A DNA stretch of 27,326 nucleotides from a virus, in IMG/VR virus record IMGVR_UViG_3300017989_000379, positions 1-27,326 of that record. One strand, written 5' to 3'. Shown here in pieces: positions 5,151 through 25,691 of this stretch (the first letter of the stretch is position 1; the number at the start of each line of letters is the position of its first letter). Both the position numbers and the translations under genes were made by a program. The notes beneath the pieces were generated by a model. The model was not told the origin of the DNA. It was given only the letters and a program-made list of their open reading frames with translations, and searched no databases.

Positions 5151-7298
5151 TTATTTTTCAGCCTCTGCAATTGATGCCGCAAAGATATCCACGAAGAGGC
5201 CATTCCTCTTCTTGTAGTGTCGTTGCCTGCTGGGATCCCTACTTACAGTGGTTGGGTATTCAGAACTATCACGGAAAACAAACTCTTGATGATATCCGCT
5301 TCCACTCACATCCTTCATTTTCATGATATTACCATCTAGGATATCATACTTCAGGGAATCTTGATAAACATTAGCGAATCTGATATATGTCATGTATGAG
5401 TTCGTGTAGATTCCAAACATTTGAGCGGGAACATTCCAACTACGATTGTCCAATGTTTTGGAAATGGTGTACCGCTCTTTCCCTCCATTCATAGAAACAA
5501 AATTGGTATCTGGACCAAACAACATACTTTCATAGTAGTTTTCGCCCCCACTACACTTGCAGTGATTATTATCTCCACCATCAGACATAACTATGGTGTG
5601 CATGATCTCAATGGATTGATTCTCTTTGAAACTCTTGACATGACCCATACACTCGACCATCATATTAGCGATACCGGTTGAACCAACGAGTCTAAATGAT
5701 ACTTGTCCTGCTGTTGATTTCTCCGAGATATTTGCAAGACAGAGTTTGAATTCCTTAATCTTCGACTTTTTTTGGTTTGAAGATACCAGCACACATGAAC
5801 ATGTTGATCCTAGAGCCACATCTTCATTGAACGACTTTCCCCCACGGACTGTTCCAGTATGACCGTATACAACAAATGGAATACCAGCCTGTTCGCAAAA
5901 TTCAATGGTGTTCAGTAGTTGCATAGATAGGTTTTCAATTCTTAGACTACCCGCCATTGAAGAGGAAAGATCGATGAAGATAGCAACGCCATGATTCTTA
6001 CCACTTCGGACAATATCTTGTGTGAGAAACACATCATCACTCGTTTTATGACTCCACAGTTTTTTTGGATTAAGAACACCAGTTGGAGATTGTTGGATGC
6101 GTGCGTATTCTCTTGCACGCATACGACTCATAAAAATAGATGCTGCTGAGGATCCAAATTTCCTTGCCATGTCAGACGCTTTTGTTCGTGAAAGTTGACT
6201 ACCAAACATAGAAAAGATATGACTGTTAGTATCAATAACATATGGTTCAAATCCGGAAAGATTTAGGGTTGAATGTGTATTAGATGATGCTCTACTATTC
6301 GTTACAATAGCATCATATGAGATTGATGACTTATTTTCTTGATCTGAAATGTCTCCTGAGTTTTGAGAGACTTCTGAGTTATTTTGGTTGGTAGAGTCGG
6401 AATCATTGCCAGAGTCGTCCGAACCGCTACCATCACAATCGGATGATTCTTTCTCATCATCACCTGATTGTGATGATCCGGATGACCCCTGATCGCCGTC
6501 AGATGACTCGCTGGACTCACTAGAGTCGTCAGATGACTCGCTGGACTCGCTGGACTCACTAGAGTCGCCTGAGCCGTTAGATTGCCCCTCTGCTCTTTCA
6601 GTACCATCTTTAGAATCTGAATTCGATTCTTGATCATCACCAGTTTCATCTTGGCTTTTGTTATTCTCTTCCAACATGCTCTCATAGATTTCCTTGGTGA
6701 GCATATACACATCATACTGTGTATTGGCATCCTTTACCCTATCTACGATATCCATCTCTTTCTGATCGAAGTTGATGGACAACAAATCTCCACACTTTAC
6801 ATGGACATTCAACCGAGTGAGGAAATTCTGGCTATTGATGTTCGACTGTGTTATTTTCTCATCATCGACAGTGAAAATACAAGCATCGAATAGAAGGAAT
6901 TCGTATGAAATTTTGTATGATTTATGGAGGTTTGGGTGTTGGCGACACATCAACTTTTCGATCCGAGCATCTTCTACGACATTGAAGATACTGTGTACCA
7001 ATCCCTTATGTGATGCTGGATGTGGAATCATTCTATCGAGATCATCTAGGAAAGTGTCACTGGTAAACAGCACATGAGCACATTCATGTGTCAACAGGTG
7101 GTCTGCAACCTCTATAGGAGTGGTTTTTGAAAAGATGGGAAGTGTGATGTGCTTCCGATGCATATCAACCGTAGCAGTATGTGCAGTATGGGAATATTCA
7201 AAAGTAATTCCACGCCTTTTTGTAAAAATACCAGCAAGAATGGTATTCACTTCCACACTGAATTGGGGGTCTGCTGTTTTTTGTGCTTTGGTTTTCAT
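5151..7298 (-). CDS. CobT-like VWA protein with HExxH metallopeptidase-like domain
   Basis: A 715-aa protein with three parts. Residues about 10-210 form a metallopeptidase-like domain with HECAH (71-75) and NVVEDARIE (about 105-113), a pairing typical of CobT-type VWA proteins. Residues about 208-325 are a low-complexity Ser/Asp/Glu/Gly linker. Residues about 430-700 form a VWA domain with the MIDAS residues DLSSS (near 441), a Thr in GSTG and Asp in MSDGGDNN. Such proteins partner with MoxR/CobS AAA+ ATPases, and one lies divergently at 7467. In bacteria CobST is the cobaltochelatase, but the third subunit is absent, so a chaperone-like remodelling role is as likely. It is first in the left-arm operon. 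Confidence 0.85.
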   Translation of the reverse strand: MKTKAQKTADPQFSVEVNTILAGIFTKRRGITFEYSHTAHTATVDMHRKHITLPIFSKTTPIEVADHLLTHECAHVLFTSDTFLDDLDRMIPHPASHKGLVHSIFNVVEDARIEKLMCRQHPNLHKSYKISYEFLLFDACIFTVDDEKITQSNINSQNFLTRLNVHVKCGDLLSINFDQKEMDIVDRVKDANTQYDVYMLTKEIYESMLEENNKSQDETGDDQESNSDSKDGTERAEGQSNGSGDSSESSESSESSDDSSESSESSDGDQGSSGSSQSGDDEKESSDCDGSGSDDSGNDSDSTNQNNSEVSQNSGDISDQENKSSISYDAIVTNSRASSNTHSTLNLSGFEPYVIDTNSHIFSMFGSQLSRTKASDMARKFGSSAASIFMSRMRAREYARIQQSPTGVLNPKKLWSHKTSDDVFLTQDIVRSGKNHGVAIFIDLSSSMAGSLRIENLSMQLLNTIEFCEQAGIPFVVYGHTGTVRGGKSFNEDVALGSTCSCVLVSSNQKKSKIKEFKLCLANISEKSTAGQVSFRLVGSTGIANMMVECMGHVKSFKENQSIEIMHTIVMSDGGDNNHCKCSGGENYYESMLFGPDTNFVSMNGGKERYTISKTLDNRSWNVPAQMFGIYTNSYMTYIRFANVYQDSLKYDILDGNIMKMKDVSGSGYHQEFVFRDSSEYPTTVSRDPSRQRHYKKRNGLFVDIFAASIAEAEK
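6498..6568. repeat. short tandem repeats encoding the Ser/Asp linker
   Basis: A 21-base unit beginning GTCAGATGACTCGCTGG occurs at 6498-6518 and 6528-6548, with nested 9-base copies of TCGCTGGAC. It encodes the SSESSESS/DDSSESSESS stretch of the VWA protein. The near-identical units suggest expansion or contraction by slippage, so linker length probably varies between relatives. Confidence 0.7.
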
Positions 7299-7466: not shown

Positions 7467-8810
7467 ATGCAGATCAAGTACCCATTTAATAACCCACAAG
7501 ACTTTAATTACCTAAATAAGAGGAATGAATGCTGGATTAATCTCTTGATTGAAAAGTATCCTCATGTACTTAAGAGTGGTAAAATTGACTCCACCGAGAT
7601 CAATGAACTACGGAACATGATCTCCCTTCATGGGTATGAAGGAAATGCTCCATCATGTTTTACTGCAAAGAAGGACGAACTTAAAATTTCTCAACTGAGT
7701 GGAGTATACAAGGTTCCTGATCTTGATGCAATCAAAAAAATGGTGTCTTTCGAAGAAGATCCCTCAACCCCATTTAAACAAGAAAAGATCTCATCATTGA
7801 AGCCAAAAATTACAAAAACTCAGCACATGAAGAATATCAGTGCGGATATTGAAGTGGGTAATGATCAAGTCGAACATATTCCTACAGTCATGAAGGGATT
7901 TCATAAGACAAGTATTTACAACACTTTACATCGTGTAATCTCCACCAACCGGTTCTATCCAGTATTTATTTCTGGTCCGACTGGTGCTGGTAAGACGACT
8001 GCCATCATGCAAGTGTGTGCTGATCTTGGCCGTGGTCTTGTCCGAGCCAATATCACCCACGAAACCGATGAGACTGATCTGATCGGCACAATGATGCTTA
8101 ATTCAGAGCAGGATGGTGGTGGAACAGGATTTGAGTATGGTCCTGCTATTATCGCAGCACAGACTGGTTCAATTCTTCTTCTGGATGAATTGGATCTTGG
8201 AACCCCGAAGACCATGTGTCTCCAGCCTCTTCTGGAGGGCAATCCAATCTACATCAAAAAGACGAATCAGTGGATTCATCCCAAGCCCGGATTCAGCATC
8301 CTCGCAACGGGAAATACCAAGGGATCAGGAAATACCGATGCAGCAAATTTCGTTGGTGCTCAGTATCTGAATGAAGCGTTCATGGATCGATTCGCCCTCT
8401 GGATCGATGCTGGATATCCAACAGCATCCGAAGAAAGCAAGTTGCTTGAATCATACTGGAAGATCATCTCACCTTATGATGCACCAAAGGCATTTATCTC
8501 TGATCTAGTCAAGTGGGCATCTCAGATTCGTGATGCGTATGCTAGTGATGGCTGTGATACAACTATCTCTACTCGCCGCCTCAAGAACATTCTTGACCAC
8601 ACCAATATTTTCTTCGATCAGACGTACACGAAGAATGTTATGGAGGTTATCAACCGATATGATCCAGAGTCAGTTGGTGCTTTTGAGCGATACTGGAATA
8701 TCGCAAATACCAAATCCAGTGGTAGTCTTCAAAATGATCTGATGCAGGATGCAAATAGCGATGATAGTGGCTCTATCTCGGAACCTCCCGCCACTTCGTG
8801 GTCACTCTGA
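7467..8810 (+). CDS. MoxR/CobS-like AAA+ ATPase
   Basis: A 447-aa ATPase of the AAA_5 (MoxR/CobS/dynein-related) type. An N-terminal region of about 130 residues precedes Walker A GPTGAGKTT (about 170-178). HETDETDLIGTMM follows, as in CobS. Walker B LLLDELD is near 237-243, ATGNTKG (sensor 1) near 278, and the conserved NEAFMDRFALWIDAGYP near 303-319. Partners of this family remodel proteins together with VWA proteins such as the divergent gene at 5151-7298. CobS-like genes are known in T4-like cyanophages and other marine phages, where their substrate is unresolved. The C-terminus (about 415-447) is Ser/Asp-rich and probably disordered. A chelatase role would need a magnesium/cobalt-chelatase large subunit, which is not seen here. 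Confidence 0.88.
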   Translation: MQIKYPFNNPQDFNYLNKRNECWINLLIEKYPHVLKSGKIDSTEINELRNMISLHGYEGNAPSCFTAKKDELKISQLSGVYKVPDLDAIKKMVSFEEDPSTPFKQEKISSLKPKITKTQHMKNISADIEVGNDQVEHIPTVMKGFHKTSIYNTLHRVISTNRFYPVFISGPTGAGKTTAIMQVCADLGRGLVRANITHETDETDLIGTMMLNSEQDGGGTGFEYGPAIIAAQTGSILLLDELDLGTPKTMCLQPLLEGNPIYIKKTNQWIHPKPGFSILATGNTKGSGNTDAANFVGAQYLNEAFMDRFALWIDAGYPTASEESKLLESYWKIISPYDAPKAFISDLVKWASQIRDAYASDGCDTTISTRRLKNILDHTNIFFDQTYTKNVMEVINRYDPESVGAFERYWNIANTKSSGSLQNDLMQDANSDDSGSISEPPATSWSL

Positions 8811-17860: not shown

Positions 17861-17874
17861 TATATACTTATATG
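17861..17874 (+). promoter_or_regulatory. late-promoter-like motif joined to the amidoligase-like gene start
   Basis: TATATA (17861-17866), CTTAT and ATG 17872, a geometry identical to the site at 8823. No Shine-Dalgarno is present. Confidence 0.58.
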
Positions 17875-20451
17875 AAAAGATTCAAACAATACATCCAAGA
17901 AGATATTCCATTCGACGTATTCTCATCTAACAAGAGTGTTAAGAAGGGAATTCGTAAAACCCATCGCAAGGCTATCGGTCAGAACAAGTTTGCTATAGAA
18001 CTTGAGTTCCAAACCCCAGAGGGTCGAATTGAGAGTGAGCGTGATGATCTAAGAGACATGTTAATGGATCAAATTTCTCCGCATGATGTCCATAGTCAAT
18101 ATGAGTCACCAGAAGAATTTGCTGAATTACTTGAGGCTGAAGTAGAGACTCTAGACTATGAAATTAAGCAATTGGAATCTTCTATTGAATATGATAAAGC
18201 GGATAAAGATGAATATGAACTTGGTTATGTGCAAGAACTGTACGGAATGAAGGCACAGCGTGCTGTTTTTGAAGTAATGAAGGATTATATCTATGATCTC
18301 GGCGAGGATGAAGATGGGGAAATTAATAGTTTAGAAGATAAGTATCCAAGAGATATTTCTACATTTTTCAGCGTCCTTGCTGCGAAGCAATATATCCAGA
18401 TGAAAAACGACGAAATATTCGGTACAAAAGAGTGGATTTCTGACAAGAAGAAGTTCCTACAGGCCAAGTATGATAAGTACCCACACGAAGACGAATTCAA
18501 GGCAAAGGGAGCAGCAGCAAAGAAGAAGTTAGATAGCATGATGGCCAAGATCAGGGTCATGAAAAAGGAATGGTTAAAAATTGATATCGAGGATTATCGA
18601 CATACCGAAGGGATGAAGATTTTTCCAGAAAATCGCGTCACTGACAAGATTGGGTTTAATGCGTACAGTTCAAAGACTAACAAGAATCTACCCAAGTATC
18701 TTGCTCAGTATGCAGCACATTATTCTGTCAAAGGGAATGAAGAATGGCATAATCAGCCACTTTTCAAAGAAATATTCCCGGTTAATCGTGATGCTCGTAA
18801 TGTAGAAGAGGTCATGATTAAAATCAATCCTACATGGGGTGATAGGAATGATTTTTCTCTGAGACTGAGTTCTACTGAAAGACCAACAATATTACTGTAT
18901 AAACTAAGGATCGTAGATGGATTCATGGATCAGCCATATGTTCGATATGGAACGTGGGGAACCTTCAAACAATGGATGCGTGACGGTAATAACGCGGTTC
19001 CCAGATTAAATGGACTTAGAAAGAACGATCTAGATAAAAAACTCCTAGACAAGTACGAGAAAGAATTAAACGATCTTGTGATGGATGTTATTGGTGATTA
19101 TAAGTTCTTAAAAGATGGAAAAGTACATACCACATTTTTTGAAAGTGATAATCGAAACTTCGAATTGGTCGTCACAGATTATGAGAATAAAGAAGTTCAC
19201 ATCGGATCTGAGTACAAAAACCAAAATGTGAAACTCGGTGATATTTTCTACATTGAAGATAGGGGCTTACTTGATCTTCCTGTGTATGAACTATCTGTTA
19301 CTATGAGTCTTTATGATAGTAAGGGTCGCCCTCGGGGTGGAAACATCCACATAGATCCGGTTGTTGCTCCGCTATTCGTCATTAAAGGAAATGGTCGAAA
19401 TAAAATGACCTATTCATCTGATGACCTGAACGATATATTTGATCATATGTCTATCATTTATTATGAAAAGAAACAAAAAGAGGGAGATGTTTCTATTGGT
19501 GGAACCCTGTCGCTCGATGGTATTCTGGAGCGTATTGAAAGTTCTGTAATAGACAGAACCCAAGAATTTTGGGATGAGCACATAGATGGACTAAAAAACT
19601 ATTATTATTGGAATTATGACGGGGGAATGGAAGAGTATATTGAATCTATAGTAAATTCACATATAGATGATGGTGGTGATGCATCTGGTTTAATTAGTGA
19701 ATACCAAGATATAATGGACATGAATTGTATATTACAGTGGGAGGTAGAAGACGACTACGGAAAGATTGAAATAAAAACTGATGATACATGGACATGGAAA
19801 GATGCCGGGGATCTGTATAGTGATCTAGAGTATATGCGAGATAATCCCAGAGTATTCGTTCCATGTGGTGGATGTTCGTGCCATGTCCATATGGATAATA
19901 CTCTTGGCGACAATTTGTTTGGTGCTATGGCACTCGGATTGATGTTCGACGAAAAGGCATTTACAAATGACCCACGGGTTATTGGGCCATCCAGACCAGA
20001 GTATACAGTTTCGTGGGCTAGGGAGATTAGACCGGGACTTATCAGTAAACTCGAATATGAATATTTTAAAGAGAGATCATCTGAATCTATGGATGGTAAA
20101 AAATCCATCATTGTTTCTGATAGAAATTTCAGAGCAGCAGCATTCTTTGGTGGATCTGGATATCCGGGTATACGTCCCAGTTCGAGAACTCTTGAATTTA
20201 GGTATCCATCGTCTGAACTTATCAGTAATCCATCACAGATCCTTGAGAATATTTTCTACTTTGCGTCTATGATCGAAATCGCATCCACCAAAAAGGTGAT
20301 TCGAAAGCAGATTGGTTCGAATAAATATCTGGTTGCGGTGAAGAATTCCCCTGACGGTGAATCATATAGGCTACAGATCCTGAATTCGCCGAGATACGAT
20401 AGATCTCTTCTTGATGCAGAAATGTTGAAAGATTTGAGAAAATACGGTTGA
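17872..20451 (+). CDS. amidoligase-like protein with probable capsid-targeting leader
   Basis: An 859-aa protein. The N-terminus MKRFKQYIQED closely resembles the capsid-targeting sequence of T4 internal proteins (MKTYQEFIAEA). IQE-D fits the L/I-x-E cleavage rule of the gp21 prohead protease. The remainder has amidoligase (glutamine-synthetase-fold carboxylate-amine ligase) hallmarks: FAIELEFQ (40-47), NIHID (491-495), CSCHVHMD (668-675) and RTLEFRYP (772-779) near a conserved Arg-rich loop. Long helical insertions (about 60-230 and 540-640) separate them. It would join a carboxylate to an amine using ATP, and may be carried in the head and ejected with DNA. ATG 17872 is preferred over an in-frame codon at 17848, which overlaps the previous gene. 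The fold call rests on motif spacing by eye. Confidence 0.65.
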   Translation: MKRFKQYIQEDIPFDVFSSNKSVKKGIRKTHRKAIGQNKFAIELEFQTPEGRIESERDDLRDMLMDQISPHDVHSQYESPEEFAELLEAEVETLDYEIKQLESSIEYDKADKDEYELGYVQELYGMKAQRAVFEVMKDYIYDLGEDEDGEINSLEDKYPRDISTFFSVLAAKQYIQMKNDEIFGTKEWISDKKKFLQAKYDKYPHEDEFKAKGAAAKKKLDSMMAKIRVMKKEWLKIDIEDYRHTEGMKIFPENRVTDKIGFNAYSSKTNKNLPKYLAQYAAHYSVKGNEEWHNQPLFKEIFPVNRDARNVEEVMIKINPTWGDRNDFSLRLSSTERPTILLYKLRIVDGFMDQPYVRYGTWGTFKQWMRDGNNAVPRLNGLRKNDLDKKLLDKYEKELNDLVMDVIGDYKFLKDGKVHTTFFESDNRNFELVVTDYENKEVHIGSEYKNQNVKLGDIFYIEDRGLLDLPVYELSVTMSLYDSKGRPRGGNIHIDPVVAPLFVIKGNGRNKMTYSSDDLNDIFDHMSIIYYEKKQKEGDVSIGGTLSLDGILERIESSVIDRTQEFWDEHIDGLKNYYYWNYDGGMEEYIESIVNSHIDDGGDASGLISEYQDIMDMNCILQWEVEDDYGKIEIKTDDTWTWKDAGDLYSDLEYMRDNPRVFVPCGGCSCHVHMDNTLGDNLFGAMALGLMFDEKAFTNDPRVIGPSRPEYTVSWAREIRPGLISKLEYEYFKERSSESMDGKKSIIVSDRNFRAAAFFGGSGYPGIRPSSRTLEFRYPSSELISNPSQILENIFYFASMIEIASTKKVIRKQIGSNKYLVAVKNSPDGESYRLQILNSPRYDRSLLDAEMLKDLRKYG

Positions 20452-20493: not shown

Positions 20494-20566
20494 CTGTCAG
20501 AAGCACACTGGAGTTGCACTCTGTCTCCAAAACAGAGGGGTTGAGGTTCGAATCCTCTCTGACAGG
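20494..20566 (+). tRNA. tRNA-Trp (anticodon CCA)
   Basis: A 73-base cloverleaf without encoded CCA. The acceptor stem CTGTCAG/CTGACAG has 7 perfect pairs and discriminator G. The anticodon stem TCTGT/ACAGA encloses loop CTCCAAA, giving anticodon CCA (tryptophan) with T33. The T-loop TTCGAAT sits on a 4-pair stem (GAGG/CCTC) closed by a T-T mismatch. The D-arm is short (GCA/TGC) but has the expected GG in its loop. Its weak D and T stems suggest a diverged phage tRNA. The next start codon is only 3 bases beyond its 3' end. Confidence 0.85.
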
Positions 20567-23321: not shown

Positions 23322-23696
23322 ATGAAACAATCACTGTTCGATGACGATAAGACAGTAATTTTCGTTTTTGGTAGCAATCTTGCAGGTCGGCACGGGAGGG
23401 GATCTGCGTTAGAGGCAGTCAAAAATTGGGGTGCTGTATATGGTAATGGGGTCGGCCTTCAGGGTCGATCCTATGCCATTCCTACAAAGGATGAATATCT
23501 GAAGGTTTTACCCTTAGAAGAGATCTCTAAATATGTTCGGGAGTTCGTTGAGTTTGCTAGATCAAACCAGAATATGGAATTCTATGTGGTAAAGATAGGA
23601 TGTGGATTGTCTGGATATAGGGATTCAGATATTCAACCAATGTTTGAAATAGAAAAACCGCTTCCGTGTAATATTGTTCTTCCGAAGGGGTGGTAG
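23322..23696 (+). CDS. macro-domain-like protein with possible clamp-binding N-terminus
   Basis: A 124-aa protein with IFVFGSNLAGRHGRGSALEA (13-32), GVGLQGRSYAIPTKDE (about 44-59) and KIGCGLSGYRDSDI (about 94-107). This is the phage family related to macro domains, annotated in databases as A1S_2505-type non-structural protein, which may bind ADP-ribose or nucleotides. It starts immediately after the upstream phosphoesterase stop (TAAATG). Its N-terminus, KQSLFDDD, resembles the C-terminal SLFDED of gp55 and bacterial clamp-binding motifs. Enzyme activity is unproven. Confidence 0.78.
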   Translation: MKQSLFDDDKTVIFVFGSNLAGRHGRGSALEAVKNWGAVYGNGVGLQGRSYAIPTKDEYLKVLPLEEISKYVREFVEFARSNQNMEFYVVKIGCGLSGYRDSDIQPMFEIEKPLPCNIVLPKGW

Positions 23697-23697
23697 T

Positions 23698-24234
23698 ATG
23701 TATGGAATATTTGGGTTGTACAGATCTGGAACTAACTATCTAGAGTATGTTATCAACCATAACACGGATCTTGATATACTAGATTCTCATGATAGGTATA
23801 TTAATAATGTAAGTTATAAACATGTGGCTAGTGACGAGTCCTTTAGAAATCTAAGAGGTTCTATTTGTATATGGAAGGGTGTGGAGGAATGGCATAACTC
23901 TATCAGAGCAACGAGAAGCGTAACAGCACATCCAATATCTCAATGGGAAGATTATCACAAATATATGATAAAAAATGCAGATAAAAGAAATATATTATTT
24001 ATTAAATATGAGAATATGTTAAAAGATCCACGACATGAATTTAACCGTATATGTGATGCTTTTGGATCTTCCATCACCAACTATCATTTAAATATCCCAA
24101 CCAGAAGAATGGATAGATCTGGGAATGTTACGGGTCACTTATTTATCCGCAGAGGAATATCAGTCAGTGTAGAAAAAACCGATACTCTTCTGAGTATAGA
24201 ATCAAAATTGGATTCTTTGTCTGGGAGTAATTAA
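23698..24234 (+). CDS. sulfotransferase-like protein
   Basis: A 178-aa protein starting at ATG 23698, 1 base after the previous stop. YGIFGLYRSGTNYLEYVI (2-19) matches the phosphate-binding loop of PAPS-dependent sulfotransferases (RSGT-T/N). ILFIKYENMLKDPRHEFNRI (about 99-118) matches their 3'-phosphate side signature (vRYEdLl-dP). CIWKGVEEWHNSIRATR (about 60-76) sits where the core P-x-x-W-x-x-S strand lies. It is shorter than typical sulfotransferases (240-300 aa), so it is a minimal or kinase-like variant. It may modify a host glycan, lipid or nucleotide. It is strongly AT-rich within its block. Confidence 0.65.
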   Translation: MYGIFGLYRSGTNYLEYVINHNTDLDILDSHDRYINNVSYKHVASDESFRNLRGSICIWKGVEEWHNSIRATRSVTAHPISQWEDYHKYMIKNADKRNILFIKYENMLKDPRHEFNRICDAFGSSITNYHLNIPTRRMDRSGNVTGHLFIRRGISVSVEKTDTLLSIESKLDSLSGSN

Positions 24235-24237
24235 CAG

Positions 24238-24846
24238 ATGCAGACAGAAGATTTCTTGAATTATGTTCGTATGGAATGCAAAAAACATGGAGTAAAACTT
24301 CGCCTTTCAAATCACAAGCGAGTTCGATCGGATGGATATTGTAGTGGGTATTTTTCCGCCGATCCACCAGAATTAGCAGTAGCCAGAAAGAGTAAAGAAT
24401 TCTGGCCTGTTTTGGTACATGAATTCTGCCACATGCAACAGTGGCTAGAAGATGCAGATGTGTGGATTAATGGAACTACATCAAATGGTACGGATGCTTG
24501 GGCTCTCATGGTAAATTACATTGGTGGTCATGATTATGATCAGGATGAAATAGATCAGGCATTTTCGATCATTATACGATGCGAGCGTGATTGTGATCAG
24601 AGAGCAGTCAAAATGATCAAGAAGTATAATCTCCCCATCGATACGGATCGATATATCAGACAATCGAATGCTTATCATTATTTTTACCATATTGTCAAAG
24701 AAACCAGAAAGTGGTATGGAAAAGAGCCGATATACTCACACCAGAGTATACTAGATCTCTGTGAGGCAAATTTTAGGTCGGATCCTGTTAGGGGAATACC
24801 AGATCTTATAAGACGGGAGATGATGAAATACATGAAGGATAAATGA
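24238..24846 (+). CDS. HExxH metallopeptidase-like protein
   Basis: A 202-aa protein with LVHEFCHMQQW (59-69), a zinc-binding HExxH inside a helix, and downstream Glu/Asp residues (CERDCDQRAV, about 120-129) that could supply the third ligand. Its N-terminal 55 residues form a small alpha/beta lead-in with SDGYCSGYFSADPPELAVAR. Phage proteins of this size with HEFxHxxQ are usually annotated as uncharacterised zinc peptidases. The stop overlaps the next start (ATGA), so it is coupled to the DruA-like gene. The substrate is unknown. Confidence 0.7.
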   Translation: MQTEDFLNYVRMECKKHGVKLRLSNHKRVRSDGYCSGYFSADPPELAVARKSKEFWPVLVHEFCHMQQWLEDADVWINGTTSNGTDAWALMVNYIGGHDYDQDEIDQAFSIIIRCERDCDQRAVKMIKKYNLPIDTDRYIRQSNAYHYFYHIVKETRKWYGKEPIYSHQSILDLCEANFRSDPVRGIPDLIRREMMKYMKDK

Positions 24847-25691
24847 TGACAAGAACAAATTTATTTGGTGAGAAATACTATAAAGAAAAATTTGACTATA
24901 ACATAACTCATGAATTGACAGAAATTAATCCAGAAAAGATATCTATTGATTTTGTAACGATGAGTGAAATATCCTATATTCAACCAAAGATATCTAAGGC
25001 AATATGGAGAGTAGCACCGGGAAGGAATATTGGTATAGTGGTAAAACATAAAGATGTTTTTATAGGTGCTATTGCTTTGGTCAGCCCAGTAATTATCCTA
25101 GGTGTGCGTGATGAATATCTTGGACTATCCAGTGACAAGTCGGAAAAAGGTAGCCAATTGAAAAACTATGCAGATATGTCCGTGTGCGTTGGACTTCAGC
25201 CACTTTCATGGTATTGGAATATTGGAAAATTAATTGCTCTTCTCGCCACATCTAAAGAAGTCAAAGATTTTTACTATTCCAAGTATGGAAATGAACTTCT
25301 TGGAATAACAACAACTTCTCTCTATGGAAAGGGATGTCAATATAATAGGATCTACAAATTTCTAGGTTATACCAAGGGATATGGGCATGAACACATAACT
25401 GAAGAGAAATATCAGGATATGATTCAATATATGCGTGACAACAATATAGATGTTCCATCATGTAGGTTTGGAGAAGGATCAAATCCAAGAATGAGACGAA
25501 TAAGTGCCTATAAAAAGGCAACAGGCGAGTCATTTACATTCAAGCATGGTAAAAAGAGGGGTGTGTATTATCATCCGAGTACGGATAAATCCATCACTGA
25601 AATATCCAGAGATTGGTACAACAGATGGGGATATTCACGATATCAGAGGAAAAAGGGGGATATTCCACCATATCTGGATGGTAAAAAATAA
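24843..25691 (+). CDS. DruA/DUF4338-like protein
   Basis: A 282-aa protein. IGIVVKHKDVFIGAIALVS (about 59-77), DEYLGLSSDKS, SVCVGLQPLSWYWNIGKLIALLATS (about 108-132) and LLGITTTSLYGKGCQYNRIYKFLGYTKGYGH (about 148-178) follow the order of DUF4338, the domain of the Druantia defence protein DruA: an IGa strand, an iGw/Gl element, a helix L-ia-l, then G-x-x-Y-x-a-x-n-x-x-x-LG-T-G. Phage members have no known function. A Lys/Arg-rich C-terminal part (KRGVYYHPSTDKSITEISRD) may bind nucleic acid. It starts with MM, and either ATG (24843 or 24846) could be used. A homologous role in defence or counter-defence is speculation. Confidence 0.6.
   Translation: MMTRTNLFGEKYYKEKFDYNITHELTEINPEKISIDFVTMSEISYIQPKISKAIWRVAPGRNIGIVVKHKDVFIGAIALVSPVIILGVRDEYLGLSSDKSEKGSQLKNYADMSVCVGLQPLSWYWNIGKLIALLATSKEVKDFYYSKYGNELLGITTTSLYGKGCQYNRIYKFLGYTKGYGHEHITEEKYQDMIQYMRDNNIDVPSCRFGEGSNPRMRRISAYKKATGESFTFKHGKKRGVYYHPSTDKSITEISRDWYNRWGYSRYQRKKGDIPPYLDGKK

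What the first reader, a model, noticed from the sequence alone, without database searches (positions are those of the whole stretch)
17872..20451. Large amidoligase-like protein apparently tagged for packaging inside the phage head
Seen: the N-terminus MKRFKQYIQED matches the 10-residue capsid-targeting leader of T4 internal proteins, ending in an I-x-E site for a gp21-type protease. The body has the ELEF, NIHID, CSCHVHMD and RTLEFRY elements in the order expected of amidoligases. Known: T4 internal proteins (IPI-III, Alt) are packaged and ejected with DNA. Inference: an ATP-dependent carboxylate-amine ligase of about 95 kDa would enter the cell at infection, perhaps modifying a host protein, peptide or peptidoglycan precursor. 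This combination is not one I know to be described.
Basis: partly seen in the sequence, partly recalled or inferred. Interest (0 to 1): 0.78.

Follow-up and report, generated by a model that had tools for sequence, protein, structure and literature searches.

The report
Phage-head-tagged amidoligase-like enzyme
A T4-like virus of bacteria encodes a large protein that carries the address tag used to load proteins into the virus head and the sequence hallmarks of an enzyme that joins acids to amines, so it is probably injected with the DNA to modify the host at the moment of infection; neither packaging nor activity has been shown.

Summary
Window 17872-20451 encodes an 859-aa, 99.9-kDa protein starting MKRFKQYIQE|D. 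This matches the T4 capsid-targeting sequence, including the residues shown in T4 to matter for targeting (4, 7) and cleavage (8, 10). In viral contigs the same leader heads about 70 otherwise unrelated proteins, one of them lying between portal gp20 and protease gp21. A gp21-type protease was found in 10 of 18 leader contigs and 0 of 12 controls. The tag is very probably real.

The body is an orphan: no homologue and no Pfam hit. Against a profile of 20 known phage amidoligases, three separate blocks match in the right order (ELEF, CSCHVHMD, RTLEFR); the last outscores 500 decoy ORFs and 200 shuffles. 'NIHID' is not part of the family signature. AlphaFold without relatives gave no usable model (pLDDT about 32), so the fold is untested. 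About 545 extra residues lie between the first two blocks, and no amidotransferase or ATP-grasp partner was recognised nearby.

Best reading: a packaged, injected, divergent amidoligase, substrate unknown; a new variant of a known kind (capsid-tagged injected effectors). Packaging, cleavage and catalysis are inferred.

The parts
17872..20451 (+). 859-aa leader-tagged amidoligase-like protein (P0001)
   Evidence: no homologue
17872..17901 (+). capsid-targeting-like leader MKRFKQYIQE; predicted gp21-type cut after Glu10 (before Asp11)
   Evidence: matches T4 CTS rules (PMC9026906) and 70 non-redundant leader proteins
17989..18009 (+). FAIELEF, counterpart of the amidoligase GxExE strand
   Evidence: hhalign, residues 31-65 to profile columns 3-35, p = 0.012, 2 of 200 shuffles reach it
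18010..19767 (+). large insertion relative to known amidoligases (ELE-to-HVH distance about 630 residues against 66-110)
   Evidence: no Pfam match
19768..19779 (+). EIKT, possible counterpart of E[LI]V[ST]P, 38 residues before the first His as in known members
   Evidence: by-eye alignment; not separately significant in hhalign
19873..19896 (+). CSCHVHMD, counterpart of C[GS]xHVHxD
   Evidence: hhalign residues 665-677 to profile columns 91-103, p = 2.1e-4, 0 of 200 shuffles
20185..20202 (+). RTLEFR, counterpart of [TS][IVL]EFR
   Evidence: hhalign residues 758-808, score 33.3 against 24.3 for the best of 500 decoy ORFs

Best explanation
A divergent stand-alone amidoligase-type enzyme (ATP-dependent carboxylate-amine ligase of the glutamine-synthetase-like PF12224 kind) carrying a T4-type capsid-targeting leader. 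During assembly the leader docks it on the prohead core and the prohead protease gp21 cuts after Glu10. The 98.6-kDa body stays in the head with the DNA, is ejected at infection and joins an amine or amino acid to a host carboxylate, most likely on a host protein or peptide (by analogy with the packaged ADP-ribosyltransferase Alt), second a peptidoglycan peptide, third a small metabolite. Shown: the ORF, the leader, the spread of the leader over unrelated proteins and its association with gp21, the ordered motifs. Inferred: packaging, cleavage, ejection, catalysis, substrate.
For: Leader obeys the T4 targeting and cleavage positions. The same leader is at the ATG of about 70 unrelated proteins, one between gp20 and gp21; gp21 family in 10 of 18 leader contigs against 0 of 12 controls, and the leader pattern itself in 0 of 12 controls. 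Three ordered amidoligase blocks with decoys and shuffles; joint signature unique to amidoligases.
Against: No PF12224 or other family hit. No homologue, no usable model. Insertion of about 545 residues. Asp11 and acidic pI 5.1 are unlike most tagged proteins or the basic T4 IPs. The gene is beside gp46, not head genes, and the fragment shows no gp21 of its own. No partner enzymes recognised nearby. hhalign values are nominal and segment limits were chosen after seeing the motifs.
Confidence: 0.6

Rival explanations
1. A packaged internal protein whose body is not an active amidoligase: a decayed amidoligase fold used for binding, or an unrelated fold that meets the motifs by chance.
For: No family model recognises it; the ELEF block is weak (p = 0.012); many T4 internal proteins act by binding, such as Ip1-3 inhibiting type IV restriction enzymes (PMC12373910).
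Against: The likely catalytic H-x-H-x-D and E-x-R residues are intact and in order, and HVH and EFR blocks are independently significant.
Confidence: 0.23
2. An amidoligase expressed in the infected cell but not packaged; the leader is fortuitous or not functional.
For: All annotated phage amidoligases seen here lack this leader and lie in late-infection or metabolic cassettes; the gene is not beside head genes.
Against: Chance of the leader at any of 50 gene starts is about 0.0016 relaxed and 3e-6 strict; T4 internal protein genes also need not adjoin head genes.
Confidence: 0.08
3. A structural prohead-core or scaffold-like protein rather than an enzyme.
For: A leader gene (phrog_1742) sits in the head operon between gp20 and gp21; residues 50-234 look helical (low confidence).
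Against: The gene adjoins gp46, has no relatives in other T4-like phages unlike core proteins, and carries amidoligase motifs.
Confidence: 0.07

Closest known systems
T4 internal proteins IPI-III and Alt with the capsid-targeting sequence (CTS)
   Same: N-terminal MKx[FY]xx[FY]IxE leader with the residues needed for targeting and gp21 cleavage; Alt is a precedent for a large packaged enzyme
   Different: Body unrelated to IPs or Alt; amidoligase motifs; 99.9 kDa and acidic; packaging not shown
Phage amidoligases of PF12224 (phiEco32, PaP3/LUZ24-like, Arthrobacter, Bacillus phages)
   Same: GxExE, C[GS]xHVHxD and [IL]EFR blocks in the same order; HVH-to-EFR spacing 103 against 76-99
   Different: Too divergent for the Pfam model; about 545-residue insertion; capsid leader; no amidotransferase, ATP-grasp or gamma-glutamylcyclotransferase partner recognised
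Leader-tagged proteins of environmental T4-like phages (alignment A1)
   Same: Same ten-residue leader, unrelated bodies
   Different: None of the sampled others shows an amidoligase signature

Membership tests
T4-type CTS-tagged internal (packaged) proteins | N-terminal leader with aromatic residues 4 and 7, I/L 8 and E10 | tested here: met
   F4, Y7, I8, E10; rules from PMC9026906
T4-type CTS-tagged internal (packaged) proteins | Phage is T4-like with a gp21-type prohead protease | tested here: inconclusive
   T4-like genes present; the 27-kb fragment has no recognised head gene; gp21 found in 10 of 18 other leader contigs
T4-type CTS-tagged internal (packaged) proteins | Present in the virion and cleaved after the leader | not testable with these tools
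   needs virion mass spectrometry
Amidoligase_2 (PF12224) | Match to the family model above its cut-off | tested here: not met
   no match even at E = 10
Amidoligase_2 (PF12224) | Ordered GxExE, HxHx[DN], ExR motifs | tested here: met
   with FAIELEF in place of FG[IV]E[IL]E
Amidoligase_2 (PF12224) | Glutamine-synthetase-like fold | tested here: inconclusive
   single-sequence models pLDDT 31-33; no fold search run on them
Phage amidoligase cassettes | Neighbouring glutamine amidotransferase, ATP-grasp or gamma-glutamylcyclotransferase genes | tested here: inconclusive
   not recognised among ten window ORFs scanned; other window ORFs not scanned and the record is a fragment

The most novel reading that the evidence does not exclude
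A T4-like phage injects a pre-made ATP-dependent amidoligase with its DNA, so that a host protein or cell-wall peptide is covalently amidated before any phage gene is expressed: a class of injected modifying enzyme not found described in the literature searched.
Probability: 0.5. Interest if true: 0.75.

Novelty: new variant of a known kind. Interest (0 to 1): 0.6.

Why it matters
Few packaged phage enzymes are understood (Alt in T4). An injected amidoligase would add a new chemistry to the first minute of infection. The leader also proved a practical search handle: one pattern pulled out about 70 unrelated tagged proteins, among them matches to S-adenosylmethionine lyase and the Thoeris inhibitor Tad6, which makes the injected repertoire of environmental T4-like phages listable and testable.

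Tried and rejected
tblastn of the protein and of a C-terminal 187-residue piece against phages: nothing, or microvirus replication initiators at E = 0.2, judged chance. Homologue scans of viral and genome contigs: none. Pattern C-x-C-H-[VIM]-H-M-D: two chance hits; G-C-x-C-H-V-H version: none. PF12224 and P0001 in 50 contigs, 44 of them leader-bearing: none. Structure prediction of the whole protein and of residues 471-859: unusable, so no fold search. Late-promoter and sigma-70 scans: chance level. Relaxed leader in the eleven gp46-relative loci: absent. HUH-endonuclease reading of H-V-H: rejected because ExE and ExR frame it as in amidoligases. NIHID as an active-site element: rejected, the family has one H-x-H. 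Attempts to name which leader proteins match SAM lyase and Tad6: not resolved.

Full report
What is there. Window 17872-20451 is an 859-codon open frame starting at ATG 17872, 13 bases after the stop of the preceding gene. The record is a 27.3-kb viral fragment. PHROG matches to tail tube, UvsW-type helicase, late sigma factor gp55 and SbcD/SbcC-like gp47/gp46 identify a T4-like phage; gp46 is nearest to cyanophage proteins at about 44% identity. The gene lies after gp46 and two unmatched ORFs and is followed by tRNA-Trp (20494-20566) and a phosphoesterase.

The leader. T4 internal proteins are put into the prohead by ten N-terminal residues; mutational work summarised in PMC9026906 places targeting mainly at residues 4 and 7 and processing at 8 and 10. 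The window protein has F4, Y7, I8 and E10. To see whether this is a real tag I scanned viral contigs for a degenerate pattern of MKxFxQ[FY]IxE. Nearly all matches are the ATG of a substantial ORF. Seventy non-redundant proteins share the leader and almost nothing else (mean column identity 6%). Positions left free by the pattern are biased too: T or S at position 3 in 54 of 70, Ala commonest at 11; the window protein has the less common R3 and D11. Families recognised behind the leader include S-adenosylmethionine lyase, Thoeris inhibitor Tad6, HD, GNAT acetyltransferase, cytidylyltransferase, NT5C nucleotidase and HNH (HD and NT5C traced to individual proteins).

Link to the head. In contig L080 a leader gene (phrog_1742) lies directly after the portal gene, followed by a virion structural protein, the head maturation protease, scaffold, major head protein, tail tube and a UvsW-type helicase. 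The gp21 protease family PF03420 is found in 10 of 18 larger leader contigs and in 0 of 12 contigs from the amidoligase-motif scans that lack the leader; one gp46 relative without the exact pattern (G003) also has gp21. The reversed leader pattern occurs in none. The controls are a convenience set, so this shows association with T4-type phages, not function. In T4, CTS proteins are packaged and injected, and Ip1-3 block type IV restriction enzymes (PMC12373910).

The body. No library recognises it (one sub-significant PHROG hit). I assembled known phage amidoligases: a C[GSR]xHVHMD pattern brought in 17 contigs, 13 with amidoligase-like ORFs, four of which were checked against PF12224 (three above its cut-off, one at 21.6 bits against 22); others came from phiEco32, PaP3, Arthrobacter, Bacillus, Aeromonas and other phages. 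Twenty aligned domains give the signature GxExE ... E[LIF][VT]xxP ... C[GS]xHVHxD ... [IV]EFR. hhalign of the window protein finds the EFR block, residues 758-808, score 33.3; the best of 500 ORFs of at least 250 aa from the leader and gp46 contigs scores 24.3, and the best of 200 shuffles of the C-terminal 260 residues scores 26.1 against 32.3. With that block cut off, the HVHMD block is found (p = 2.1e-4, 0 of 200 shuffles), and in the first 130 residues the ELEF block (p = 0.012, 2 of 200). Each hits the correct profile region, in order. Fisher combination of the nominal values gives about 2e-7, an optimistic figure because segment limits were set after seeing the motifs. The joint HVH...ExR signature is absent from every other non-amidoligase ORF held.

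What differs. ELE to HVH is about 630 residues rather than 66-110, and HVH to EFR 103 rather than 76-99. Known phage amidoligases often neighbour amidotransferase, ATP-grasp or gamma-glutamylcyclotransferase genes and are hypothesised to modify peptidoglycan against superinfection (PMC5498523; PMC10580990). No such neighbour was recognised here, although not every window ORF was scanned. That fits a stand-alone modifier better than a cassette enzyme, but it is inference.

Mechanism proposed. The leader docks on the prohead core; gp21 cuts at IQE|D; the body is kept with the DNA, ejected, and uses ATP to activate a carboxylate and join an amine. I rank a host protein or peptide first as target, a peptidoglycan peptide second, a metabolite third. 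I put a functional leader at about 0.85 and an amidoligase-type fold at about 0.75.

Limits. One orphan sequence from a fragment; no homologue, no usable model, no proteomics. Literature was searched only in an open-access library; no paper describing a capsid-tagged amidoligase appeared.

Noticed in passing
L097:6505-9422 (- strand): Four different leader-tagged genes (175, 275, 119 and 158 aa) lie close together on one 14-kb contig: an apparent island of capsid-tagged proteins.
   Followed up: partly
L080:1366-1686: A 106-aa leader-tagged protein of unknown function (phrog_1742) sits between portal gp20 and protease gp21, in the region where T4 has core genes 67 and 68; close copies occur in many leader contigs.
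   Followed up: partly
Alignment A1 (70 leader proteins): Leader-tagged proteins match S-adenosylmethionine lyase and Thoeris inhibitor Tad6, which would suit injected anti-defence roles; the individual proteins were not identified.
   Followed up: partly
L081:9839-11062 and L071:947-2098: Two leader-tagged proteins belong to DUF6267 (PF19782), a family without known function that may thus be a packaged head protein.
   Followed up: no
window 5151-7298 (-) and 7467-8810 (+): By eye a large von-Willebrand-type protein next to a divergent MoxR/CobS-like ATPase, inside a T4-like phage replication region; not tested.
   Followed up: no
window 23322-23696, 23674-24234, 24843-25691: By eye a 'FGSNLAGRHGRG' phage protein, a sulfotransferase-like ORF, and an ORF resembling phage DNA-modification acyltransferases; none tested.
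   Followed up: no
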